A stretch of 64,000 nt of DNA from Basidiobolus meristosporus CBS 931.73 (taxonomy: Eukaryota; Basidiobolomycota; Basidiobolomycetes; Basidiobolales; Basidiobolaceae), in the NCBI GenBank assembly GCA_002104905.1, contig MCFE01000026.1, positions 166,791 to 230,790 on the forward strand, read 5' to 3'. This document shows, piece after piece, positions 856 through 64,000 of the stretch (positions are counted from its first letter, which is position 1; every line of letters begins with the position of its first letter). A program made the translations under genes and the position numbers. The notes under the pieces are model-generated. The model ran no database searches and was not told the origin of the DNA. It saw only the letters and a list, made by a program, of their open reading frames with translations.

Positions 856-3800
856 TCATCTCCTGTCGGGGAGACCGGACAAGAAAGAAAGCACAGCATT
901 GATACTGCTGGCGAAATAGCTGGCTTGAGTAGCTTTGGACCCAACCGTACATGTGAAGATGCTTTTGTCAGGCTGGGCCAATTGTAAGTGTTCTAGGACC
1001 TCAAACATATCCTCATCAGTCCGATCATCCCCGATAGCTACGATGAAATCTGCGTCTGGATTGGCTTCCAGTACGCGGTGAACCGCGTTACTCTTGGACA
1101 CCGAGCGTGGGAGCACCTAAAAGAGGCCAGATCAATGCCATGCTTCAGGGACAATTAGACGTTAAACTACCTCAAGGTTCTTGCTAACCGCAACAACATG
1201 AATAGGATACACGGTTCCAAGTGAGTCTTGGATGTGGTTCTGACATTCTGCTGCTTGCCAAGCACTGGAAAACGGGTTGGTAAACAGAGTGATACACGTG
1301 TGCTTGTTGACAACAAAACGACATACCCATAAGAAGTATTATCTGCCAGGCGGTAATCCCATACAAGCGCCACTTCCTTGGATTCGATGAACGATCCTAA
1401 ACCCAAGAGGTTAGATATCGGTGAGTGCAGCAGGGGAGAATGGGATGCACACAAACCTGGAGTACGTTCAGTGTAGTATTCAAATATCTAATCAGAGTGT
1501 GTTAACAATGAGCACTTCCACATTGCTCTCACACGTACGGCCTTACCTCCTTGACCTTCCCTTGCCAGCTGAAGTCGTTGTCAGACAGTAGACGCTCCCA
1601 TTTCGAATTCTGGTGCTTGATAAAACAGCCATTCTCGGCACTAAGAAACAGAACGCTCAGTCAGCACAAATCCATGAGAGATCGAAGCAGTCCGGATCGG
1701 TTACCTGAAGCCCAAGTTCGGGATATTTTTGAATACTTCGTCGAGCGATGCTGTGGTTCTACCGCTCATAATATAAACTATGTTCTTCGGATCGCTAGTC
1801 AAGCTCTCAAGAAGCGTTTTAACTCTGTCAAATGATGCAGGGTTGGAGTGAGCCCGGATGTATGGGGCCAGGGTGCCATCATAATCAAGGAAGAAAAGCC
1901 TCTTCTGGCTGCCTTGATACGCTGCCTTCGCAACAAACGGTGTTATGTGTGGGATCTGGACCGAGCTACGACGTTCCCCGTGAGCTTTATCGAGCTCATC
2001 CAAGAAGCTCTCCGCCCAAAACTGTGCCGAGTTGGTAACCACATTGTCATATAGCTCCTTCCACCGGTAGGCTCTCTCGTCATCCGGCATCGACAGTGAT
2101 TCATTGATGGCTTCTGCCAGTTGGCGAGTATCCCATGGGTTCACACGAATCGCTGCAGCCCCAAAACTACCATAGGTGCCGGCGAACTCACTAATGATCA
2201 GCGGACTACATTTCTTCTCCTGGCACATCACGTACTCATGAGAAGTCAGGTTCATTCCATCTCTTAGAGAGGTGATCATAAAGGAGTCCGCGACCGTGAG
2301 AAGGGCCAGGTATTGGTAATAGTCGATGTCTTGATGCAAGTATATCACCGGTTGGTAGGACAGGCTTCCATATTTGGAGTTGATCCGCGAAGCAATATCA
2401 GACACTTGTCCCTGGAGTTCGTTGTGTTCGGTGGTGGGGAGTGAGACCTGTAGGAGACTGACCTATAGTGCACATCGATGGTTAATCCGTATGCTGACGA
2501 CTCGCCACAAGACCAGTCAATTACCTTTCCCAGCCAGTCTGGATACATGCTCAAGAATTTCTCAAATGCCAGCATCTTTTGCCTCACACCTTTGACATAA
2601 TCAAGCTTATCGCGACCGATCACCAGCTTCTTGTCACCATATTTCTCTCTCAACGAAGTGGCGATGTCAGTGACATCGGGACTATTTCTAGAGGGACAAT
2701 CGATTACTTTAGCCGACAATCATAGGGCCGCTGTTAACCAGATAACACGTACCTTTTCTCGATGAGCGCCTTCGCATCGATGCCTGTAGGTTGGTAGAAA
2801 TGGCATGTTTAGTGGCTGTGAACGACAGGTGCATAATCGTCAACCATACCGATAGGGAAGATTCCGACCGAAATGAATCTATCATCGACTTGAATTCCTT
2901 TGGGCGAGGATTCGTATGACAGAATTCGACTGCAGTTCTCAAGGAAATGCCGGGCAAATGAATAAGTCTGCATGGCGACCCTGTGAGTTGATGGGCTTGA
3001 TCAGACACTACAGTCAGATGAGAGGCTTACCTGAAATCCAACCAAATCAGCGCCCAAAACCCCCTCCAGGATCTGACGACGCACTGTTCACCGCGTGTTA
3101 ACTACGTACACACTCAAGTCAACGTGATGAAATACTAACCATGAAGACATCTGAAGATTTCCGAACTAGGGAATGGGATATGGAGGAAGAAACCAATCTT
3201 AGCCTCGGGGATTTTCTCGCGAATCATTGCTGGCAGAAGCATAAGGTGATAATCGTTGACCCAAACTGGTATCGAGGCGGTTAGTAACTGGAGAAACCGC
3301 CAGGGGATCCATGAATGGCTTACTTATATCCCCAGGCTGATACACCTCAACAACAGCGTCGGCAAACTTTCTGGTCACCGACAGACAGTGTTGCCACGCC
3401 TCATCCTCATACCCAAGAGACTGTGGGTACTCCGGAAGAATATAATGGAACATTGGCCACAGTACCTAAATCTAGCATTAGCTTTGATCAATCTTGTGTA
3501 ATCGTACTGTAGGTCACCTGTTTGCAAAACTTGTTATAATGACCGTCCATCTCATCATCGGAGAGGAAGACCGGATGGCAATCATATTTGCTTTTCAACT
3601 CCTCCTTGATCGCGTGGCGATTCCGCTCACTAAGCTCTTCAGTAGATATGGACAAGGTGCCAATCCATGTCCTGGATCCCAGTTTATCCGCGATGGAGTT
3701 CACTGCGTTGTGTAAGCCAATATTTCCCACTGAGCATGGGGTCACTCTCCACGGGGAATCCGGCGAGGTAGCTGAGACGGACTTTCTTCTTTGATGCTTT

Positions 3801-48620: not shown

Positions 48621-50621
48621 ATGCTTACAAACAAGCGCCTGTTCCTAGGTCTGTGGACCTTTAGATTGGTGAATGCTCTGTCAATTCAAACCTTTTTCGT
48701 GCCCGATGAATATTGGCAAACACTCGAAGTTGCTCATCACTGGGTGTTTGGATATCCTTTTGAATTCGTGTTTTTATCGTTTCGGCTTCGTGTACTTGAT
48801 CATCCTTAACATCAACTATACCTATGGTTACTTGACCTGGGAGTGGAAAGAAAAGATCCGAAGTTTCACTCATCCACTCATTTTCGCTCTCTCTTACGAG
48901 GCACTGAAGTTGTGGGGTTTGGACAATGCCAAGTGGCTTGTAAGTAAAGAATATTCGCTCCGGCCCTTCACAAGATAGCAGCCATAACCTTTGCCCGCAG
49001 GTTCTAGTTCCCTACATCATTCAATCGTTTTTCGCCGCATTATTGGATCTTTTCACATACAAAACAGCAAGTCGGATTTTTGGCCCGACTACAGGAAGAT
49101 ACACTGTATCCCTTTTGTTTTGAACCGACAATACCTCCCTCCAGCAGACCGCCATAAGTCTCCTTAACCTGAATCATAGCTATTTTGTTCAGTGATTTCG
49201 TGGTTCAATTTTTTCTGCTCGACCCGGCTACTTGCCAATTCCTTAGAAACCTCCCTGACTGCCATGGCGTTGTACTACTGGCCATCGCATAGCCGTACTC
49301 CAACAAACCAGACCGAGGAGTGGTTAGGGTGAGAGGATTACGATAATTTGCTCTGTATGTCTGAAGAGAGAACTAAATGCTCTCGTATAGTCAGCTCTCG
49401 AAGGCACTCACACTGGCGGCTCTTTCATGCGTTCTTCGCCCTACCACGGCGGTTATATGGATATTCCTTGGAGCGATACTGGTAGTAAAGAGGATCACCT
49501 ACCTGATACCAATTCTAAGCCGAGTCATTACCATCGGGTATGGTACACGCAAAACATGATAATTTACATTCACCTAATCCCTAATCCCTAATCCCTAATC
49601 CCTAATACTACATTAGGCTACTTGCGGTTGCTGGCATGGTATTGATTGACTATGGATTTTACGGGGAATGGGTATTTGTGCCATATCAATTCTATCATTT
49701 CAATGTCACGCAGAACATTAGCCTATTTTATGGCGGACACCCATGGCATTGGTATTTGTCACAAGGACTACCAATCATAACCACCACCTTCATTCCCTTC
49801 TGGATATACGGTGTGGTGAAGTCGAAGCACCGCGAGCTGTTTTATGCTGCGATCTGGGTGTTGGTTGGATATAGCTTGCTCGCCCATAAGGAGTTTCGCT
49901 TCATTTACATCATCTTGCCAATTCTATTGATGTACGCTGGCCATGGGCTTGCCTATGTGGTTAATGGCAAGTGGAGAAAGTATAAGACCTACGTAATCGT
50001 GTTCCTGGCTGCCACCAATATACCAATGGCCATATACATGACTCAGGTCCATCAACGTGGAGTGGTCGATGTAATGGATTACCTCACGCAAGAGGCGTAT
50101 CGCAACGAAGCAAACGGCCTACCATTGCTCAAGGAGATTGGGTTTTTGATGCCCTGTCACTCTACCCCTTACTATAGCCATCTACACAAAAATGTCGATA
50201 TGTGGTTCATTACCTGCGAGCCTCCTCTCCAGTAAGTGAATCGGAAAATACACTGCTTCATTGGCATGCACTAATACGAGCCATGTAGTGGCGTCAACAT
50301 GGACAAGTACAAAGATGAAAGCGACCTGTTCTACGAGGATCCAGCTGGATTCCTAGATACCAACTTTGAGCCCCACGGGCCAAGAAAATGGCCGACCCAT
50401 CTGGTCTTTTTTGAAGCACTGAGAAGATCGATTCACCCCAAACTTGAATCTCTTGGCTACCAAGAGGTAATATATTCCAGCCTAACCTCATACACCAATC
50501 ACATTACATCACCTTCGCCCAAATCACTAACCGAGCAAATGATTAGTGTGCCCGCATATTCAATTCACACTTCCACGATGATTCGCGCAGAACTGGAGCG
50601 GTTCTAGTCTACTGCAAATGA
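48621..50621 (+). CDS. GPI10: GPI mannosyltransferase III (PIG-B / Gpi10)
   Basis: ER enzyme adding the third mannose to the GPI precursor (GT22 family). Eight exons join in phase: 48621-48751, 48822-48939, 49001-49105, 49180-49328, 49391-49537, 49617-50231, 50289-50466, 50547-50621; 505 aa. Motifs: QTFFVPDEYWQTLEVAHHWV with the luminal catalytic Asp-Glu, GYLTWEWKEKIRSFTHPLIF, LRPTTAVIW, LAHKEFRFIYIILPILLM, and the terminal FNSHFHDDSRRTGAVLVYCK. Multiple membrane helices. Introns 1 and 3 have U12-type signals (separate entries). Intron 5 contains a CCCTAAT minisatellite. Reading the last exon straight through from exon 7 gives an unrelated tail, so the 50467-50546 intron is required. Confidence 0.93.
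48752..48821 (+). other. U12-type AT-AC intron in PIG-B
   Basis: 70-bp intron with donor ATATCCTTTT (48752-48761), branch site TCCTTAAC (48803-48810) and AC end 12 nt after the branch adenosine. No GT-AG pair restores the frame; this choice yields HHWVFGYGYLTWEW, the conserved family sequence. Confidence 0.88.
49106..49179 (+). other. Probable U12-type GT-AG intron in PIG-B
   Basis: 74-bp intron with donor GTATCCCTTT, branch site TCCTTAAC (49161-49168) and CATAG acceptor 12 nt past the branch adenosine. Splicing gives TGRYTLFCSVISWFNFFCST, as expected for the family. Confidence 0.75.
49571..49607 (+). repeat. CCCTAAT minisatellite within a PIG-B intron
   Basis: About five tandem heptamers of the CCTAATC type, near-telomeric in sequence but with 7-bp period. 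Confidence 0.85.
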
Positions 50622-53976: not shown

Positions 53977-54936
53977 ATGCCTCTATTCAACACCATCCCT
54001 GTTGACATTGAACAGGTACGTCGGCTGGTTCTAGAACATTGGGGTGCTGAGTTAGGTGAATGCATCAAATCCTCTCAGAACCACACTTACCAGGCGAATA
54101 AAGGGGCGGACCGCTTCATCGTACGAGTTACTCCTGACCCAGACAGTAGTAGATTCGAAAGCATTGAGTTGGAATTAGCTTTGCTAAAATACCTACATGA
54201 TAACGAACTTCCAGTATGCCAAGCAATCCCGAGTCTGGTCACTTCCACTGCTGCTGTACGCAGTGGCACCCTTATTCTCAGTCTCTTTAACTTTGCGACC
54301 GGTGAACCGGTGAACTACACCGACTGGACTTGGATGACCAACAAAGAAATTGTAGTCGGGCTCGGTCGTTGGTTTGCTCTCCAGCACAAACTCACCCGCC
54401 AGTTCGCCCACGAGAGACCAGAGCTTGCATCCCACGTCCGCCACTGGAAAACTCTTCATGATGGAGTCTTGTCTGATGTGGAAGTTGACGAACAGGATAG
54501 CAAAACTGCTTCGGACCCAAAGCACTTTGGAATTATTCACGGCGATGTGAATCCAAGTAACTACTATTGGGATGCAACGATTGGAATGCCATGTATGTTT
54601 GACTGGGATCAAGTACAGCTCTCATGGTTTCTCTATGACTTGTCTGCTCCTATCTGGGGTGTTGTGACTTTGGAATTAGCCGGCTCTCCAATCGATCACT
54701 CTGCTGTTCCGCAGGCCAACTCCGAGCAGTATACGAATTGGCTTCTTGAGGGTTATGAGGCGACTGGCGGAAACACAGTAGATCGTGAAGCGCTTCGCCG
54801 AATGGTGGCAATCCGCCGAGAGCTCTACAGGCTGTTTTGCAAACGAGCCTTGTTAGAGCTACCTGCTGAACACCCAATGGCACAGTTTTGTAAGTTTATG
54901 ACGGACTTCTTTGACAAACTAGATACCAGTCAATAG
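53977..54936 (+). CDS. APH-family (aminoglycoside/choline-type) kinase
   Basis: Intronless 319-residue protein with the APH/choline kinase fold: N-lobe NHTYQANKGADRFIVRVTPD, catalytic loop FGIIHGDVNPSNYYWD (HGD and Asn present) and metal-binding MFDWDQVQLSWFLYDLS. It resembles the homoserine-kinase-II/SrkA-like branch of APH proteins; the small-molecule or protein substrate is unknown. It is the last unique gene before the subtelomeric repeats. Lack of introns among intron-rich neighbours allows bacterial origin, but this is not proof. Confidence 0.78.
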   Translation: MPLFNTIPVDIEQVRRLVLEHWGAELGECIKSSQNHTYQANKGADRFIVRVTPDPDSSRFESIELELALLKYLHDNELPVCQAIPSLVTSTAAVRSGTLILSLFNFATGEPVNYTDWTWMTNKEIVVGLGRWFALQHKLTRQFAHERPELASHVRHWKTLHDGVLSDVEVDEQDSKTASDPKHFGIIHGDVNPSNYYWDATIGMPCMFDWDQVQLSWFLYDLSAPIWGVVTLELAGSPIDHSAVPQANSEQYTNWLLEGYEATGGNTVDREALRRMVAIRRELYRLFCKRALLELPAEHPMAQFCKFMTDFFDKLDTSQ

Positions 54937-55857: not shown

Positions 55858-56191
55858 TTAGGGTTAGGGGGGAGACAATCACAAACAGGTGAAATCTTTA
55901 TTTCCTGTGAAACAAAGAAGCCAATGCTACTACTCTAGCTTTGATACCAGAGTATGGAGCTGAGGGGAACTGGTAGGTGAGTTAATAATTAGATATGATA
56001 GCTCTTTAGTGCTCAAGACACTGTTCAGTGGGAACAGGGGTAGCAAAAGGGGTCATAACAATTTGTCAACAACATTAATCAGTGAAACATGATATGGACT
56101 GATATTCATCATAAACAAAGTGTTGTGCACCAACATTCAAAATTTAGCTAATTTGCTCCATTAGAAAATCTCATACCCTAACTGATTTTCC
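55858..56191 (-). mobile_element. 5'-truncated LINE copy 1 (3' end only)
   Basis: Starts on the plus strand with TTAGGGTTAGGGGGGAGAC, then a diverged LINE 3' UTR (hairpin CACAAACAGGTG, one base changed) and the last part of ORF2 (STEELSS- and HNTSFMMNINPY-type region) to about 56130. The next 60 bp are shared with copy 3. Much older than copies 4 and 5, judging from its substitutions. Confidence 0.75.
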
Positions 56192-56361: not shown

Positions 56362-57062
56362 ATTAGGGGGGGGATGGTAATCACCAAAAGGTGAAATCTT
56401 TATTTAAATCATAAATAAAGAAGCCAAGTTTGAATTTGAATATTTCAGAAGCAGAAAGCCTACAAGATAAGGTTGGACTTTGCTGCTTCACAGATATCCT
56501 AAATATTAAAGTCCAGGGGAGAATGTAGCAAGACTGCTTGTTCACTGAAGTATTTCTTGACAAAGTTTGTCAGTTGGAGGGAAGGAGGGTTTTTCAACAA
56601 GCTGGTAAATCTTTGCAGAAGTTCTTTTTCCAAAGAGAATGGTACAAAGAGTGGAATGTCTAAATGATGCTTGAATAAGTGCTCTGAGAGCTCCCAATCC
56701 AGCATATTTTGGACTTCTTCTGTAAAATCTTCAACAATGTCCTTGTCAAGAATAACTTCCAGTAGATCCTGGGCAATGTACTGAATGTTAATATTTTTAG
56801 GCATATGAATACCTAGGTGTTTGAGGTATTTCTTTGTTCAGAAATTGGGAGATAGCCAGCATTTCTGAAAAATCATAGAGCCCAATTGGCAGTGGGAGGA
56901 GTATCAGGGCTAACAGGGAATCTTCTTCTGGCTTTAGGGTGCACTGGCTTAGGAGACTGTCTTGATGGAAGGGCAGCTGGCTTTGGATGAGCCAGAAGTG
57001 CTTAGGAGTAGGCTTGAGTTGGGGTAGCAGGAGTTGCTGGTGGCTGACAGTGCTCAAATTGA
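56362..57062 (-). mobile_element. Diverged LINE relative (copy 2) with ORF1-like remnant
   Basis: TTAGGGGGGGGA at 56362 leads a related 3' tail with hairpin CACC-AAAA-GGTG. It joins a broken ORF1-like segment (56499-56804; LLEVILDKDIVEDF corresponds to ILEVILDQNIADPF in the intact ORF1). The N-terminal continuation at 56797-57062 is in a shifted frame. ORF2 is missing, so it is either an internally deleted copy or a non-autonomous relative. Confidence 0.6.
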
Positions 57063-57065
57063 CTG

Positions 57066-57394
57066 GAAGGGGGGGGGAGACAGTCACCAACAGGTGAAAT
57101 CTTTATTTCAGTTGAAACAAAGAAGCTTGCGCTACTGTTGTAGCTTTGATACAAGAGTGTGTAGCTGAGGGGAACTTGTAGGTAAGTTTACAAGAAGTGA
57201 AGATAGTTCTTCAGTACTCAAGACACTGTTCAGGGGGAAGGGGGGTAGCAAGAGGGGTAAGAACAATTTGTCAACAACATTAATCAGGGAAACATGATAT
57301 GGATTGATATTCATCATAAAGGAAGTGTTGTGCACCAACATTCAAAATTTAGCTAATTTGCTCCATTAGAAAATCTCATACCCTAACTGATTTT
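57066..57394 (-). mobile_element. 5'-truncated LINE copy 3 (3' end only)
   Basis: Starts after a G9-10 run at 57067, carries the standard hairpin CACCAACAGGTG, and the same ORF2 C-terminal remnant and the same 60-bp distal flank as copy 1. The shared break plus flank means one is a duplicate of the other. Confidence 0.8.
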
Positions 57395-58262
57395 CTTAGG
57401 GGGGAGCCAGTCACCAACAGGTGAAATCTTTATTTCAGCAGAAACAAAGAAGCAAGCGCTACTGTTGTAGCTTTGATACAAGAGTGTGTAGCTGAGGGGA
57501 ATTTGTAGGTAAGTTAATAAGAAGTGATGATAGTTCTTCAGTGCTCAAGACACTGTTCAGTGGGAAGGGGGGTAGCAAGAGAGGTAAGAATGCCTTGTGA
57601 ACAACATTAATGAGGGGAATGTGATAAGGATTGATATTCATCATAAAGGGAGTGTGCTGCTGCAGATATTGCTGCCAAAGGTCTGTCAAGTACTTCAGGT
57701 AGGCCAGCTTGGGTTTTTCTGACTGCAGAATAAATTGAGCAAACTTCTTGACTTCAAGATCTCCAAGTATAGTTCTCCAGCAGGAGTCAGGTGTAGTGTG
57801 GTGTGTTCTCTTCCAGGTCTTGATCAGTGGGTTGTTGCAGTGGTGAGGTCTGAGATATAATCTGGTTCTAAGGTAGAGTAGTCTGATCTTGTAGGGCATA
57901 AACCCAAAAGCACCAAGAATAGCATGTCTGTAGGGGCATTCAGGCAAATGAGGCACCAAGGAGGTAATGTACCATACTGCAAACTTGTCAAGCTTAGTGC
58001 AGTCTCTAGAAGTAAGAGAGAGAAGTGGTAAGCCAAATTCCAGGACAGGGAAGACAAACTGCTTGAGTAGAAGGAGGCACCTGGGAGCTGAAGTTGTAGG
58101 AGGAGTAACAGCCAATAGCTTGTGGAGTGCCTGTCTTGCAAGGATAATTCTCTTCTTCAGGTGTGCTCCAGAGTCTAGTCCAGTAGGAAGGAAAGGAAAG
58201 CCAAGATATGTAACAGAAACCTGAGCAGGTAGAGTGGAGTTCTCCAAGATGATGGGAGAGGG
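57395..58262 (-). mobile_element. 5'-truncated LINE copy 4 (ORF2 C-terminus)
   Basis: TTAGGGGGGAG at 57395, 3' UTR, then the C-terminal portion of ORF2 (open from the stop at 57459 up to about 58262, residues matching ENSTLPAQVSVTYLGF to LHTLVSKLQQ). It is nearly identical to the full-length copy 5, with only scattered substitutions, so it is young. It breaks off at GATGGGAGAG, where the full-length copy continues into the reverse-transcriptase core. The open frame extending to 58364 is fortuitous. Confidence 0.85.
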
Positions 58263-58370: not shown

Positions 58371-58904
58371 ATACTGCTCCCATACTCCTTAAATTCCCAT
58401 TGGATTACTTTTCTCTCATTCTTGGTTCTGGTCCCTTAGGGTTAGAATTCCTCCTCCTAACCCTTATCACCCTAACCATAAATATTTTTACCCTACAATT
58501 GGCACATTGTCTGCTCATATAGTGGGCATGTCTGGGCCAATATTTGTCTCCCTATACTGTCCATATGCTCTGTATAAGTCTTGATGACTATTTAATTAAT
58601 AAATTGTTACTTTTAATGTATATCTAATAATTAATGGGATTCATCCCAATCTGGCCACAATCCCATATTTTGATAAGCTTTGGGCACCATAAATTGCGCG
58701 GCCTTAATATGATAAAAAAATTCATGGCCAATACAAATTTTCTGTAACCCAATTGCTTTTACCAAATATAAGGTGTATCCCAAAGTTCAATATATATTAT
58801 GGCTATAATAGAAACTTTATTTGACACCATCACAACTACTACTTATGTTCTATGCGCACATGTATCCTGCGGGAATTGTAAAACTTAGCCATGTGGTACA
58901 AAAG
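58371..58904. other. Subtelomeric unique AT-rich sequence
   Basis: No gene found. Scattered telomere-like bits (TTAGGGTTAG at 58437-58446, CTAACCCTTATCACCCTAACC at about 58458-58478). Confidence 0.4.
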
Positions 58905-59364
58905 TGCTTTTATTTTTCATCAGGATAGTCTTACATGAGTTCCTAACGCACTTTGAAAGTACGCAGTAGCCATACCCCAACAGGTTTTAAGGATGTCCAC
59001 TAGCCATGTCCACTTGTGTCTAGCGGGAGCCATCAATCATCAGCTGTGCAATACTGAAATGCTTTTTTTTTTCATCATGCTTGTTTTGTATGAATCCCTA
59101 ACACACTTTCATAGTGCGCGGTAACCATACCCCTACAGGTTTTAAGGATACCCACTTGCTACATTTACTTGTGTCTAGCAGGAGTCATCAATCATCAGCT
59201 GCGCGGTAATAAAGTGCTTTTATTTTTCATCATGATAGTTTTACATGAGTCCCTAACACACTTTTATAGTGCGCGGTAACCATACCCCAACAGGTTTTAA
59301 GGATACCCACTTGCTACATTTACTTGTGTCTAGCAGGTGTTATCAATCATCAGCTGCGCAGTAA
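58905..59364 (+). repeat. Three tandem units of a 155-bp subtelomeric satellite
   Basis: Units start at 58905, 59060 and 59215 (TGCTTTTATTTTTCATCA at each, some changes), period 155 bp. Units 2 and 3 are closest. Each contains CCATACCC-ACAGGTTTTAAGG and ends ATCAATCATCAGCTG. The third unit ends directly at TAGGGTTAGG, the start of the full-length LINE. Confidence 0.88.
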
Positions 59365-59386
59365 TAGGGTTAGGGGGGGAGACAGT

Positions 59387-59398
59387 CACCAACAGGTG
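59387..59398 (-). promoter_or_regulatory. LINE 3'-end hairpin
   Basis: CACC-AACA-GGTG, a 4-bp stem with 4-nt loop a few bases from the 3' terminus. It is conserved in copies 3, 4 and 5; copy 2 keeps the stem but has loop AAAA, arguing for a recognised structure. AAATAAAG lies just upstream in the sense direction. Confidence 0.6.
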
Positions 59399-59433
59399 AA
59401 ATCTTTATTTCAGTTGAAACAAAGAAGCCAGCG

Positions 59434-62202
59434 CTACTGTTGTAGCTTTGATACAAGAGTGTGTAGCTGAGGGGAATTTGTAGGTAAGTTAATAAGAAGT
59501 GATGATAGTTCTTCAGTGCTCAAGACACTGTTCAGTGGGAAGGGGGGTAGCAAGAGAGGTAAGAATGACTTGTGAACAACATTAATGAGGGGAATGTGAT
59601 AAGGATTGATATTCATCATAAAGGGAGTGTGCTGCTGCAGATATTGCTGCCAAAGGTCTGTCAAGTACTTCAGGTAGGCCAGCTTGGGTTTTTCTGACTG
59701 CAGAATATAGTGAGCAAACTTCTTGACTTCAGGATCTCCAAGTATAGTTCTCCAGCAGGAGTCAGGTGTTGTGTGGTGTGTTCTCTTCCAGGCCTTAATC
59801 AGTGGGTTGTTGCAGTTGTGAAGTCTGAGGTATAATCTGGTTCTAAGGTAGAGAAGTCTGATCTTATAGGGCATAAACCCAAAAGCACCAAGAATAGCAT
59901 GTCTGTAGGGGCATTCAGGCAAATGAGGCACCAAGGAGGTAATGCACCATACTGCAAACTTGTCAAGCTTAGTGCAGTCTCTAGAAGTAAGAGAGAGAAG
60001 TGATAAGCCAAATTCCAGGACAGGGAAGACAAACTGCTTGAGTAGAAGGAGGCAGCTGGGAGCTGTAGTTGTAGGAGGAGTAACAGCCAGTAGCTTGTGG
60101 AGTGCCTGTCTTGCCAGGATAATTCTCTTCTTCAGGTGTGCTCCAGAGTCTAGTCCAGTAGGAAGGAAAGGAAAGCCAAGATATGTAGCAGAAACCTGAG
60201 CAGGTAGAGTGGAGTTCTCCAAGTTGATGGGAGAGCCCAAAGGTACTGTCTTTGCAATGGAAAGCTGGAGATTATTCTTCTGCAGATACTGGTGGATGGT
60301 CTGGGAGTCTTGTTGCACATTGGAGGAGGATATTCTGATGTCATCAGCAAAGAGAGTAACCAGGCAGTCAGCTGAGAGTCTTGGGAAATCATTCAGGAAG
60401 ATGGCAAACAGTATAGGACCAAGCACAGAGCCTTGAACCACTCCATTAGGAACTGAGAAAACAGCTGATTGCTCACTTGGGTGCAGAATTCTTGCTTGTG
60501 GATCCAGAAACAGAGATCTGACAAGGAGGGTGAGAGAGGTACTGGAGAAGCATTGCAACTTGGACCAAAGCAGATTTCTGTCAACTGAATCAAAGGCCTT
60601 AGTAATATCAAACAGAACAGAGGGATACTTGCACTGGAGAGAGTGATCTTGGCTAAGTATGACTGCATAATCCAAGGAGAGGCCTGGAACAAAGCCAAAC
60701 TGTGCAGGATGAAACTTGAGAGAGTCAGAGTAGAGCTCCTGAGCAAGCAGAAGCTCAAACACCTTTCTGCAGGTGGGCAGCAGAGATATTGGCCTGTAGG
60801 AGCTAGGATCCAGGTGCTTTCCTTTACCCTTGTACAGTGGCAGAACATTTGCAAAGGACCATTCCTCAGGAGTAGAAAGCTGGGCTGAGCATTGCTGAAA
60901 CAGTGGAAGCAGAAGTGCAGACATGGCCTTGGTACTAGTCTTCAGAAGCTCATAGGAGATTGTGTCCACACCTGGAGCAGTAGAGTTGGGAAGCCTCTTG
61001 AGCACATTATGGATTCTCCTTTGATCAAGTGCAAGTGGGATGGGCAGAGTCTTGAAGTCAGGATGAAAGCCAGGAGTTGAGTACTGCTTTGTAGAGAAGA
61101 AGATGTTAGCCAGCTGTTCTGTTGAAGGTAACTTCCTGGAAGAGGGCCTCATTGCCCTGTAGAGTCTTGATACTGTTCTTGTTATAGAGTTGGAAGATTG
61201 CAGAGGCAAGGAACTCATAATATGATCCCAGAGCTGAGTATGCAGAGTGTGGTGAATTGCCTTGGAGTGGTGTATTGCTGTCAGGAGGAGTTTCTCTGTT
61301 TTTGGGTTAGGGAAGCTCAGGTAGCTTTGTTGCAGGGCTGCAACAATGGATTCCCATTTTCTTGAGGTAACAGCAGTAGTCTTGCATGGCAGTGAGAGGG
61401 AGGCAGACACCAGAATAAGATGCTTCACAAAGAGCCAGGCAAAGTTGAGATCATCTGGCAGAGAAAGTAGCAAACTGGCAAGCTTCAAGTAGTTCCCAAA
61501 GTCTTTCTTCTGATTCTTGGTAGCTTTGTGGGTGAGCACAGTAAGTTTTGGCAGCTTCTTCTTCACAACTGGTTGCATAGAAAGGGACCAGGCTGGGTGG
61601 TCAGAGGCTCTCAAGGATCCTAGCTCAGCTCCAGAGAATTGCTTAACTTCATTCACAAAGTAGAGGGCAGCAGCAGAAGGGCAGATCCAGTCAACACATC
61701 TTTTCTCAGATTGAGCACCTAGTGCTAGCAGGTGGCTTTCTCTCAGGAAGTTCAGTAGGAATGTAGACCTTGGCTTCATTCTTGCAGTCAGAGTAGTCTT
61801 GTTCTCAGGATGGGGAATGTTGAGATCTCCAAGCAAGATAACAGGTGTTGATATAGATTGTTGGTATTGCTGAACCTTCTGGCATATAACTTGCACTTCC
61901 TGAAGGGCTAGACTTGGAGGCAGATAGCAGAGCACCAGACTGATAGTTGGCAACTGGAGAGCAGCACAGTAAGGGGAGTAAAGAGGAACACAGAGCTGAG
62001 GAGTATTGATGGTAGAAGAGATGAAGCAGATAGAGGAGGTATTCTTTGTTCTAGGAGTAGAAAAGCAATATAGATTAGTCAAAAGTATAGAGGGTAGCTG
62101 GACATCAATCAAACACAGGAGGGAAAATCTTGAAAGAAGTCTCTCTAGAGTTGGTCTTGATGGCTGTATGCTGTTGCAGTTAAGCAACAGAACTTCAGGT
62201 AG
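59434..62202 (-). CDS. LINE ORF2: APE endonuclease plus reverse transcriptase
   Basis: Open for about 920 codons from CUA (62202), immediately after the ORF1 stop. Endonuclease (residues about 1-220): VLLLNCNSI, the VILLGDLNIP metal site, CVDWICPS and SDHPAWSL. The reverse transcriptase (about 350-640) carries APGVDTISYELLK, YKGKGKHLDPSSYRPISLLP, FDITKAFDSVDR, VVQGSVLGPILFAIFLND and the catalytic TLFADDIRI. The C-terminal part has no obvious RNase H or CCHC. There is no ATG before the endonuclease; the first in-frame Met (MKPRSTF) lies inside it. Expression therefore probably needs readthrough. Confidence 0.9.
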   Translation of the reverse strand, partial: LPEVLLLNCNSIQPSRPTLERLLSRFSLLCLIDVQLPSILLTNLYCFSTPRTKNTSSICFISSTINTPQLCVPLYSPYCAALQLPTISLVLCYLPPSLALQEVQVICQKVQQYQQSISTPVILLGDLNIPHPENKTTLTARMKPRSTFLLNFLRESHLLALGAQSEKRCVDWICPSAAALYFVNEVKQFSGAELGSLRASDHPAWSLSMQPVVKKKLPKLTVLTHKATKNQKKDFGNYLKLASLLLSLPDDLNFAWLFVKHLILVSASLSLPCKTTAVTSRKWESIVAALQQSYLSFPNPKTEKLLLTAIHHSKAIHHTLHTQLWDHIMSSLPLQSSNSITRTVSRLYRAMRPSSRKLPSTEQLANIFFSTKQYSTPGFHPDFKTLPIPLALDQRRIHNVLKRLPNSTAPGVDTISYELLKTSTKAMSALLLPLFQQCSAQLSTPEEWSFANVLPLYKGKGKHLDPSSYRPISLLPTCRKVFELLLAQELYSDSLKFHPAQFGFVPGLSLDYAVILSQDHSLQCKYPSVLFDITKAFDSVDRNLLWSKLQCFSSTSLTLLVRSLFLDPQARILHPSEQSAVFSVPNGVVQGSVLGPILFAIFLNDFPRLSADCLVTLFADDIRISSSNVQQDSQTIHQYLQKNNLQLSIAKTVPLGSPINLENSTLPAQVSATYLGFPFLPTGLDSGAHLKKRIILARQALHKLLAVTPPTTTAPSCLLLLKQFVFPVLEFGLSLLSLTSRDCTKLDKFAVWCITSLVPHLPECPYRHAILGAFGFMPYKIRLLYLRTRLYLRLHNCNNPLIKAWKRTHHTTPDSCWRTILGDPEVKKFAHYILQSEKPKLAYLKYLTDLWQQYLQQHTPFMMNINPYHIPLINVVHKSFLPLLLPPFPLNSVLSTEELSSLLINLPTNSPQLHTLVSKLQQ

Positions 62203-63711
62203 TCAGGCAGAGGTTGTAGCTTCTTCAGAGGGAGCATTAACAATGTGACCTGCAGAGTCCCAGAGCTCTTCAAATGGTGCATCACTTAAGTCAGCAAGGA
62301 GGGAAATGGCATGGTTCTTGAGGAAGTATGCCACATCATAGGAGGGGGCTTGTCTCTTGATGGCAGCAAAGAAAGACAGAATGGCAACATGGGCTGGAGG
62401 CTTGTTGAACAGTAGAGAGTCAGAGGATTCAGATTCTTCAGGCACTATCTTGAAGTCAGTTTTCAGCCAGTTAAGGTTCTTCTCCACAAAGGCAACAAAT
62501 GGGTCAGCAATGTTTTGGTCTAGGATAACCTCCAGAATCTTCCCTTTTCTCCAGGCCAGGTTGACAATTCTTGAGAGCTGAATATTGCATGCCTTGAGTG
62601 CTTTCCTGATGTTGGAAATGGGGGTCCAGGGAACTTGCTTCAAGTACACCACAGTCCAGGTAGAAGCTGGTGGTAGGTTTGCTGGGGGCTTGTAAGTCCT
62701 TCTGTGTTGCAATGGAGCTGCAGTAGTCAGATTGGAGTCCACATTCTCAGTAGAAGGTTTTCTTGATGTGTCTTGCTGAATAGTACTGGAGCTGGATGTG
62801 CTGATAATTCTTGCCAGAACCTTGCCTGCATAAGTCTGAGGTATAGCTGAGGTGACTGCAGAGGTGGTGGCAGCTGGTGCAGGTGGAGAGGCAGAGACTG
62901 AAGCAGGAACTGAGGTCACCTGGGAGAAGGCTGTAGAAGCAGGTTTTCTGGGAGGAACAGAGTTCACTATCCAGTTGTTCTGTAAAACACTGGAGTAGCT
63001 TTTCTGTGGAACAGGATCTTGCTCTTGAACAGGAACAGAAGCAGGAGGCTGGGGCTGAGCAGTAGTGGTAAGGCAGTGGCACTCCAAGGAAGCTTTTTGC
63101 AAGGCATCTCTGGCAGTTTTCAGGGCAGTATTGGCTTCATTCTTGAGCTTCTTGCATTGGGCATCCAGTCTCTTGTTTTCAATAGCCAGGGCAGTATTGG
63201 CAGCCTCTAAATCAGCAATTCTCTTCTCAATTGCAAGGAATCTCTGAAGAAATGCATCAGTAGAAGTGCTGGCATCTGGGAGAGCAGTGGCAGGAATAGA
63301 GTCCATTGACAGTGGGCTTCTTGGAGGCAAGGAAAGTGGACTGGCAGATTCAGGCACAAAAGGAGATATCCTGGCAGGAGGAGAAGGAGTATCCAAGGCA
63401 GCAACAGGGGCAATTCTTGTTGGTGAAGCAGCAGCAGGGGAGGCAAGCCTGTTCAGAAACTGGGCAGGAGAGAGTGCTTGAGGAGAGGGAGTCTTCAGCT
63501 TGCCAAGCATGTCTTCCATCAGAGTGATACCAATATTCCTGGTGCATTTGCAGAGAAAAGTAAGCTTCCTGAGTCTGCCAGCTCTTCCATTCCTTCTGAT
63601 AGTTCCTTTGTTTCCACAGTTGGGGCAAGAAATCTTCTTGACAGACTTGTCAAAGCAATCAAGAACCTTCCTTTCAGGTGTAGTGGGCTCCTGTTGAGGT
63701 TTTGGTGGCAT
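62203..63711 (-). CDS. LINE ORF1: zinc ribbon, coiled coil and RRM-like domain
   Basis: About 502 aa from ATG 63711 (MPPKPQQEPTTPERKVLDCF). A four-cysteine zinc ribbon near the N-terminus (ISCPNCGNKGTIRRNG ... LTFLCKC) is followed by a Pro/Ser-rich linker. A coiled coil (IADLEAANTALAIENKRLDA) and a C-terminal region STWTVVYLKQVPWTPISNIR then GKILEVILDQNIADPF suggest an RRM-like fold, as in L1-type ORF1p. It ends EEATTSA before UGA at 62205-62203, followed by CUA in the same frame as ORF2. The N-terminal ribbon replaces the CCHC knuckles usual in fungal LINE ORF1. Confidence 0.8.
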   Translation of the reverse strand: MPPKPQQEPTTPERKVLDCFDKSVKKISCPNCGNKGTIRRNGRAGRLRKLTFLCKCTRNIGITLMEDMLGKLKTPSPQALSPAQFLNRLASPAAASPTRIAPVAALDTPSPPARISPFVPESASPLSLPPRSPLSMDSIPATALPDASTSTDAFLQRFLAIEKRIADLEAANTALAIENKRLDAQCKKLKNEANTALKTARDALQKASLECHCLTTTAQPQPPASVPVQEQDPVPQKSYSSVLQNNWIVNSVPPRKPASTAFSQVTSVPASVSASPPAPAATTSAVTSAIPQTYAGKVLARIISTSSSSTIQQDTSRKPSTENVDSNLTTAAPLQHRRTYKPPANLPPASTWTVVYLKQVPWTPISNIRKALKACNIQLSRIVNLAWRKGKILEVILDQNIADPFVAFVEKNLNWLKTDFKIVPEESESSDSLLFNKPPAHVAILSFFAAIKRQAPSYDVAYFLKNHAISLLADLSDAPFEELWDSAGHIVNAPSEEATTSA

Positions 63712-63780
63712 ATCCAGAGTTTCAGCTTCAAATTTCAATTTTTGAGATTTTTGGGTGATTTTTGATGGGCGGGATCAAAA

Positions 63781-63810
63781 TTAGGGTTAGGGTTGCGCGC
63801 TGTGACTGCT
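63781..63810 (+). repeat. Two telomere repeats plus 18-bp non-telomeric insert
   Basis: TTAGGGTTAGGG (63781-63792) then TTGCGCGCTGTGACTGCT (63793-63810), before the terminal array resumes. Confidence 0.9.
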
Positions 63811-64000
63811 TTAGGGTTAGGGTTAGGGTTAGGGTTAGGGTTAGGGTTAGGGTTAGGGTTAGGGTTAGGGTTAGGGTTAGGGTTAGGGTTAGGGTTAGGG
63901 TTAGGGTTAGGGTTAGGGTTAGGGTTAGGGTTAGGGTTAGGGTTAGGGTTAGGGTTAGGGTTAGGGTTAGGGTTAGGGTTAGGGTTAGGGTTAGGGTTAG
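63811..64000 (+). repeat. Telomere, (TTAGGG)n
   Basis: About 31.7 perfect TTAGGG units to the end of the window, G-strand reading outward, so this is the right chromosome end. Confidence 0.99.

What the first reader, a model, noticed from the sequence alone, without database searches (positions are those of the whole stretch)
59365..63811. LINE inserted in telomere with a C-rich 3' end that can pair with the telomeric G-strand
The intact element sits between TTAGGG tracts, with its 3' end toward the chromosome interior and 5' end toward the tip. The plus strand reads TAGGGTTAGGGGGGG then element cDNA. This is the product expected if the telomeric 3' overhang (ending in GGG) annealed to the C-run at the RNA 3' end and primed reverse transcription, after which telomerase capped the new end. 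There is no poly(A). HeT-A, TRAS/SART, MoTeR and Penelope-like elements are precedents for telomeric retroelements; a fungal APE-type LINE priming this way would be new as far as I can tell.
Basis: partly seen in the sequence, partly recalled or inferred. Interest (0 to 1): 0.92.

Follow-up and report, generated by a model that had tools for sequence, protein, structure and literature searches.

The report
Retrotransposon that stacks at chromosome ends
A fungus that still has telomerase also carries jumping genes that pile up, nearly always facing the same way, at its chromosome ends, apparently because their RNA ends in a run of C that can pair with the G-rich telomere strand.

Summary
The window ends at a telomere of a fungus, probably Basidiobolus (89 Mb, 1,311 contigs). 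Of 653 exact copies of the element's 3' end, 635 directly follow GGGG and 518 have TTA plus a G-run (control: 3 of 220 G-runs). No poly(A)-derived T-run was seen at 117 local junctions. In 11 telomere-bearing loci, 31 of 32 tails face the tip 5'-first. Of 56 copies on long contigs, 53 lie within 20 kb of the end they face (15% expected). Copies form head-to-tail stacks of 5'-truncated elements joined by 0-3 TTAGGG units; 0 of 28 stacks resume the interrupted copy. Two LINE families and a ~525-bp non-autonomous element share a tail: AAUAAA, hairpin, C-run.

Priming by the telomeric G-strand on the C-run is the best fit. Corrections: the window copy is slightly 5'-truncated; free end versus endonuclease nick is unresolved; MoTeR/FoTeR elements of other fungi show the same polarity, and MoTeR the same stacking. 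What differs here is an APE-type LINE, the C-run tail and the scale. New variant of a known kind.

The parts
58901..59366 (.). Three copies of a 155-bp tandem repeat; the array stops at the element's 3' junction and does not resume distally
   Evidence: sequence
59365..59379 (+). 3' junction: TAGGGTTA (telomeric phase) plus G7, antisense of the C-run
59380..63810 (-). LINE copy, 4,431 nt, slightly 5'-truncated
59386..59399 (-). 3' hairpin TCACC-TGTT-GGTGA next to the C-run
   Evidence: folds in 5 of 5 tail types tested; exact stem in 33 of 47 distinct tails
59404..59409 (-). AATAAA, polyadenylation-signal-like
   Evidence: shared by construction of the search
59434..62202 (-). ORF2 frame: APE-like endonuclease and reverse transcriptase; follows the ORF1 stop in the same frame
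62203..62205 (-). TGA between ORF1 and ORF2, followed by CTA: candidate readthrough site
   Evidence: TGACTA in 5 of 5 copies matched with those letters left free
62203..63738 (-). ORF1 as listed from TTG (511 aa); first ATG by count at about 63711
63781..63792 (+). TTAGGGTTAGGG inside the 5' UTR, also present in L033 and L039
63811..64000 (+). Terminal telomere (TTAGGG)31
55858..56115 (-). Older truncated copy with junction TTAGGGTTA plus G6 (84% identical)
56363..56426 (-). 3' tail of a divergent family (81% over 64 nt) with TTA plus G8
57069..57328 (-). Truncated copy with G9 directly after ...GACTGGAA, no TTA
57396..58260 (-). Truncated copy (97%) with junction TTA plus G6

Best explanation
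A telomere-directed LINE with an APE-like endonuclease, plus non-autonomous partners sharing its tail, that adds itself to chromosome ends. Its RNA ends in a hairpin and a C-run. The 3' end of the telomeric G-strand, (TTA)GGG-3', pairs with the C-run and primes reverse transcription; the cDNA, usually 5'-truncated, becomes the new chromosome end; telomerase-type healing adds TTAGGG at in-phase seed nucleotides; later copies are added on top. Shown by sequence: polarity, terminal place, G-run and TTA junctions, truncated head-to-tail stacks without target continuation, telomere caps on truncated 5' ends, a telomerase RNA-binding-domain match. Inferred: the priming step, that the primer is a free chromosome end (natural, eroded or broken) rather than a nick, and hairpin recognition by the RT.
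For: 635 of 653 3' ends with GGGG; 518 with TTA plus G-run against 3 of 220 control G-runs; 31 of 32 tails same polarity in 11 telomere-bearing loci; 53 of 56 copies on contigs of 40 kb or more within 20 kb of the end faced, 15% expected; 28 stacks, 0 continuations, with two inserts of other elements detected as positive controls; 27 of 38 truncated ends with an in-phase seed, about 28% by chance; subtelomeric block cut at different positions before different copies, L012 and L027; telomerase match.
Against: Final structures do not tell a free end from a nick in a telomere. All linkers seen are short, which free-end priming at long healthy telomeres would not give. An APE-like domain is retained although terminal priming needs none. 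Exceptions: an array 98 kb inside C558, opposite polarity in C726 and C355, and C27, C217, C284 whose end on the expected side is not telomeric. One stack (L050) has no G-run, and two (L026, L040) have imperfect linkers. Assembly only, no reads.
Confidence: 0.6

Rival explanations
1. Target-primed insertion inside the telomere: the element's endonuclease nicks the TTAGGG strand, as proposed for TRAS/SART and MoTeR, and the nicked GGG-3' end primes at the C-run. Interstitial tracts of three or more TTAGGG later break or shrink, leaving the short linkers seen.
For: An APE-like domain is conserved, with GDxN, Y and SDH motifs kept. In M. oryzae stable interstitial tracts hold at most two TTAGGG and three or more promote breaks (PMC7367193, passages). 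Here the linkers stop near two units (43, 41 and 3 of 87 junctions with 0-3, 4-9 and 10 or more nt), and the longest tracts inside the arrays, away from chromosome ends, are three units in the loci read.
Against: About a fifth of 3' ends (135 of 653) lack TTA plus G4 in the pattern used. The catalytic E column reads D in the three family rows covering it and in the second LINE. MoTeR linkers range from half a unit to more than 20, broader than here.
Confidence: 0.25
2. The LINE RNA itself carries a telomere template (C-run plus about UAACCCUAA), so its RT makes the TTAGGG linker as well as the LINE copy.
For: Linkers drop sharply after TTAGGGTTA: 266 of 653 have GGGTTA plus G-run but at most 21 have one more repeat. 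Every donor copy has such letters next to its C-run, so read-through transcripts would carry them.
Against: Telomerase is present and in-phase seeds are also expected of it. The cut-off also fits loss of fragile tracts. No RNA data.
Confidence: 0.15
3. Stacks spread mainly by recombination between subtelomeres (break-induced replication, amplification) rather than by new reverse transcription.
For: Two identical 225-nt truncated copies and a longer copy follow at the same 283-nt spacing on C324. Common subtelomeric blocks recur. MoTeR arrays also expand this way (PMC7367193, passages).
Against: Truncation points and flanks differ at most of the 91 junctions listed, and one subtelomeric block is cut at different places in L012 and L027.
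Confidence: 0.1

Closest known systems
MoTeR1/MoTeR2 of Magnaporthe (Pyricularia) oryzae
   Same: 5' end toward the tip, head-to-tail arrays separated by TTAGGG, 5' truncations healed at in-phase seeds, autonomous and non-autonomous members sharing the 3' end (PMC7367193, passages)
   Different: MoTeR1 has a restriction-like endonuclease and TTCGGG(TTTGGG)n at its 5' end; linkers range from half a unit to more than 20. Here an APE-like LINE, a C-run tail, linkers of 0-3 units
FoTeRs of Fusarium oxysporum
   Same: Fungal telomeric non-LTR elements whose 3' end abuts TAACCC (PMC12857005, sections 3, 18, 19)
   Different: Group with MoTeR1/CRE-type elements carrying a restriction-like endonuclease; 3.0-8.0 TAACCC copies at the 3' end; no C-run reported in the sections read
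HeT-A/TART/TAHRE of Drosophila
   Same: Head-to-tail arrays assumed to be primed by the 3' OH of the chromosome end, attach to broken ends, non-autonomous partner (PMC4700185, section 14 part 1)
   Different: Poly(A) tails (recalled) and no telomerase; here a C-run, telomerase and TTAGGG caps
TRAS/SART of Bombyx mori
   Same: APE-type LINEs living in telomeric repeats (placed in the R1 clade in PMC10088271, section 9; endonuclease type recalled)
   Different: TRAS and SART insert in opposite orientations and use sequence-specific nicking (latter recalled); poly(A) tails (recalled)
Endonuclease-deficient Penelope-like elements (Athena, Coprina)
   Same: Telomere-associated, overhang priming proposed (recalled; only the start of the abstract of PMC3846280 seen in a listing)
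   Different: Different RT class and no endonuclease; here a LINE-type RT (best PDB match L1 ORF2p)

Membership tests
APE-type LINE (non-LTR retrotransposon) | LINE-type reverse transcriptase | tested here: met
   RVT_1 E 6.8e-25; L1 ORF2p E 1.9e-21 with the family profile
APE-type LINE (non-LTR retrotransposon) | APE endonuclease upstream of the RT | tested here: inconclusive
   Exo_endo_phos_2 20.9 bits, below the 27.4 cut-off; relative P0005 carries PF14529; motifs align but catalytic E reads D; no PDB hit for the domain alone; model too uncertain there
APE-type LINE (non-LTR retrotransposon) | 5' truncation of many copies | tested here: met
   61 distinct truncated copies with at least 100 nt beyond
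Telomere-specific retrotransposons | Location at chromosome ends with fixed polarity | tested here: met
   31 of 32; 53 of 56; exceptions listed in the text
MoTeR/FoTeR (CRE-like) group | Restriction-like endonuclease, CRE-type RT | tested here: not met
   An APE-like domain lies before the RT; no restriction-like domain was reported by Pfam at E up to 0.01. No tree was made
HeT-A/TART type telomere maintenance | Replaces telomerase | tested here: not met
   Telomerase RNA-binding domain match over cut-off on C880 (one of its two pieces reads one TAG) and TTAGGG arrays
HeT-A/TART type telomere maintenance | Priming from the chromosome 3' end | not testable with these tools
   Junctions fit, but a nick would give the same product
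tRNA-derived SINE (for the ~525-bp partner) | tRNA-like head | tested here: inconclusive
   A B-box-like GGTTCAAATCC by eye only; ARAGORN 0 genes in five loci; Rfam no tRNA hit at E up to 10
tRNA-derived SINE (for the ~525-bp partner) | 3' tail shared with a partner LINE | tested here: met
   AATAAAGATTTCACC-loop-GGTGA and C-run in both

The most novel reading that the evidence does not exclude
The LINE RNA ends in a telomerase-like template (C-run plus about UAACCCUAA). Its RT, without needing its endonuclease, extends bare or broken chromosome ends first with TTAGGG and then with a LINE copy: a second, retrotransposon-based way of maintaining ends that works beside telomerase in a fungus with, by my estimate, some 200 assembled telomere arrays.
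Probability: 0.15. Interest if true: 0.92.

Novelty: new variant of a known kind. Interest (0 to 1): 0.74.

Why it matters
If true, the telomere's own G-strand selects the RNA by pairing with its C-run, in an APE-type LINE of an early-diverging fungus that keeps telomerase. That would be a natural intermediate between TRAS/SART-type insertion into telomeres and Drosophila-type replacement of telomerase. With 653 exact 3' ends and readable junctions, it makes the question whether retrotransposons prime from natural chromosome ends directly testable.

Tried and rejected
Ordinary internal LINE insertions with poly(A): rejected on what was seen (no T-run of 7 or more at 117 junctions; 635 of 653 ends with GGGG); 18 of 653 ends lack an adjacent GGGG and were not inspected as a set. 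Nested insertion into older copies: rejected for stacks (0 of 28; 14 had the second element's end plus 100 nt in view and 5 more reach a terminal telomere; the other 9 have little power). The two continuations found among 61 copies (L024, L038) are other inserts; L024 has a 5-bp duplication and TG...CA ends. tRNA origin of the partner: looked plausible by eye, not supported. Structure model of ORF2: mean pLDDT 62.9, residues 1-82 below 50, so the endonuclease site cannot be judged. Hairpin covariation: not used; the stem is exact in 33 of 47 distinct tails, the 14 others carry changes that mostly break a pair, and no compensating change was looked for. LINE clade: not assigned, no reference set at hand. 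'Dead endonuclease': not claimed; D is acidic.

Selection: one search ranked copies by likeness to a query holding the junction, so 28 of 66 LINE junctions were dropped from the linker histogram (with them the 66 read 23, 40, 3 for 0-3, 4-9, 10 or more nt), and two rows without an adjacent G-run were dropped. The nine partner copies were found by requiring both ends, so their full length is by construction. Location counts use the 73 places with known contig length; 17 on contigs under 40 kb were set aside, 7 of them facing the farther end. One search uses a shorter element part, so 21 is an upper bound. In one search BLAST ends extend maximally, so chance seeds are somewhat above the 28% given.

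Full report
What is there. The window is the last 64 kb of contig C491 of an 89.0-Mb, 1,311-contig assembly and ends in a 190-nt perfect TTAGGG array. The nearest named homolog of one host gene in the window is from Basidiobolus ranarum at 75%; several unnamed metagenome proteins reach 70-73% and rotifers up to 70%, so this is only moderate evidence of the genus. On the minus strand the element reads 5' UTR, ORF1, in-frame TGA CTA, ORF2 with RT, then AATAAA, the hairpin TCACC-TGTT-GGTGA, CTGTCT, C7 and TAACCCTA. Two longer copies show that the window copy lacks about 120-250 nt at its 5' end; the longer of the two has a tandem duplication there.

Genome-wide junctions. Exact matches to the 24-nt 3' end number 653 (610 forward, 43 reverse), the strand bias following that of a telomere 30-mer (6,978 to 73). 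GGGG directly precedes 635. Patterns for TTA plus four or more G match 518, GGGTTA plus G 266, and one repeat more at most 21. Other G-runs of four or more in the window are preceded by TTA in 3 of 220 cases. In 38 LINE junctions not chosen by the query the G-run is 5-10 long. In 87 junctions of all tail families (38 LINE, 49 others) 43 have 0-3, 41 have 4-9 and 3 have 10 or more nt of telomeric phase before the G-run.

Polarity and place. In 11 loci ending in a telomere, 31 tails have the polarity of the TTAGGG strand and one the opposite, a short 3' fragment on C355. Of 56 copies on contigs of at least 40 kb with known length, 53 lie within 20 kb of the end their 5' side faces, against 15% for random placing. 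The exceptions are C558 (98 kb inside), C355 and C726. Short contigs C27, C217 and C284 do not end in telomeres on the expected side and stay unresolved.

Stacks. BLAST of the window element shows head-to-tail series of 5'-truncated copies, for example seven on C2 within 10 kb. Of 61 distinct truncated copies with at least 100 nt of distal sequence, 28 are followed within 60 nt by another tail; in 25 of the 28 the linker is wholly in TTAGGG phase before a G-run (L026 and L040 imperfect, L050 without G-run). None of the 28 resumes beyond the second element. The same test found two true inserts, one with a 5-bp duplication and TG...CA ends, so it can see insertions. Truncated 5' ends run straight into telomere arrays in L010, L018, L027 and L041, and a truncated LINE body does so in L054. 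In-phase seeds stand at 27 of 38 truncated ends, about 28% expected; MoTeR reports 17 of 23 (PMC7367193, passage).

A family system. Forty-seven distinct tails share AATAAAGATTTC (the search asked for it) and a C-run; 33 keep the exact stem TCACC/GGTGA with loops of 4-6 nt. The hairpin is predicted in 5 of 5 tail types folded, z from -1.7 to -3.2. One tail belongs to a second LINE with its own 921-aa ORF2 and an ORF1 (L049). Another belongs to a non-autonomous element; the nine copies found with both ends span 512-513 nt from stem to 5' end. Genome-wide its exact 5' end occurs 209 times (199 forward, 10 reverse), 167 of them directly followed by TTAGGG. A tRNA origin was not supported.

Proteins. 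ORF2 has five close relatives, 48-80% identical, on unnamed short contigs; the other 73 hits are 22-39% identical over partial alignments. The RT is LINE-type. The endonuclease match is below Pfam's cut-off; in the family alignment the catalytic-E column of outgroups reads D (LIDV) in the three rows covering it and, by eye, in the second LINE, while GDxN, Y and SDH are kept. ORF1 and ORF2 share a frame across TGA CTA in both LINE families, and 5 of 5 copies matched with those six letters left free keep TGACTA. UGA CUA is, from memory, a known readthrough context; ORF2 has no ATG near its start by eye.

Mechanism. Terminal G-strand priming on the C-run explains polarity, G-run, lack of poly(A), terminal place, outward truncation and telomere caps. 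It does not by itself tell a free end from a nick. The linker cut-off near two TTAGGG units is the most telling detail and has three readings: ends acted on when nearly bare, loss of longer fragile tracts as reported for MoTeR, or an RNA-borne template of about 1.5 repeats. A telomerase RNA-binding-domain match on C880 makes healing by telomerase available. Copies 97-100% identical to the window copy suggest recent activity.

Literature. Seen: PMC7367193 by passages; PMC12857005 abstract and sections 3, 18, 19; PMC10088271 abstract and section 9; PMC4700185 abstract and section 14 part 1; other papers as listings only. Searches for fungal telomeric non-LTR elements, Basidiobolus, endonuclease-independent ends and telomeric SINEs listed none describing this system; the library lacks most subscription papers.

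Noticed in passing
window 62200-62205; L049 8737-8742: ORF1 and ORF2 lie in one frame separated by TGA CTA in two LINE families about half identical in protein: a candidate stop-codon readthrough signal in a LINE.
   Followed up: partly
L009, minus strand, around 2620-2770: A LINE copy truncated at element position 3326 is followed by the element's 5' UTR in inverted orientation (a 5'-inversion-like joint).
   Followed up: no
L024 2212-2563; L038; window 57320-57396: TGTTGT...ACAACA-bounded insert with a 5-bp duplication in L024 (solo-LTR-like); similar sequence recurs inside other LINE copies and in the window.
   Followed up: partly
L050 1-600 (C558): By eye, an LTR-retrotransposon pol/integrase-like stretch next to the internal, oppositely facing LINE array; possible old chromosome end or misassembly.
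   Followed up: no
window 49573-49606: (CCTAATC)5 tract, a 7-nt telomere-like variant repeat 14 kb from the end.
   Followed up: no
window 53977-54936: Phosphotransferase gene (PF01636) whose named relatives are Basidiobolus, bdelloid rotifers and amoebae: patchy distribution, possible horizontal transfer.
   Followed up: no
window 63650-63735 (ORF1 start): ORF1 begins with a CxxC...CxC zinc-ribbon-like stretch before a coiled coil; Pfam at E up to 0.01 names only the coiled coil.
   Followed up: no
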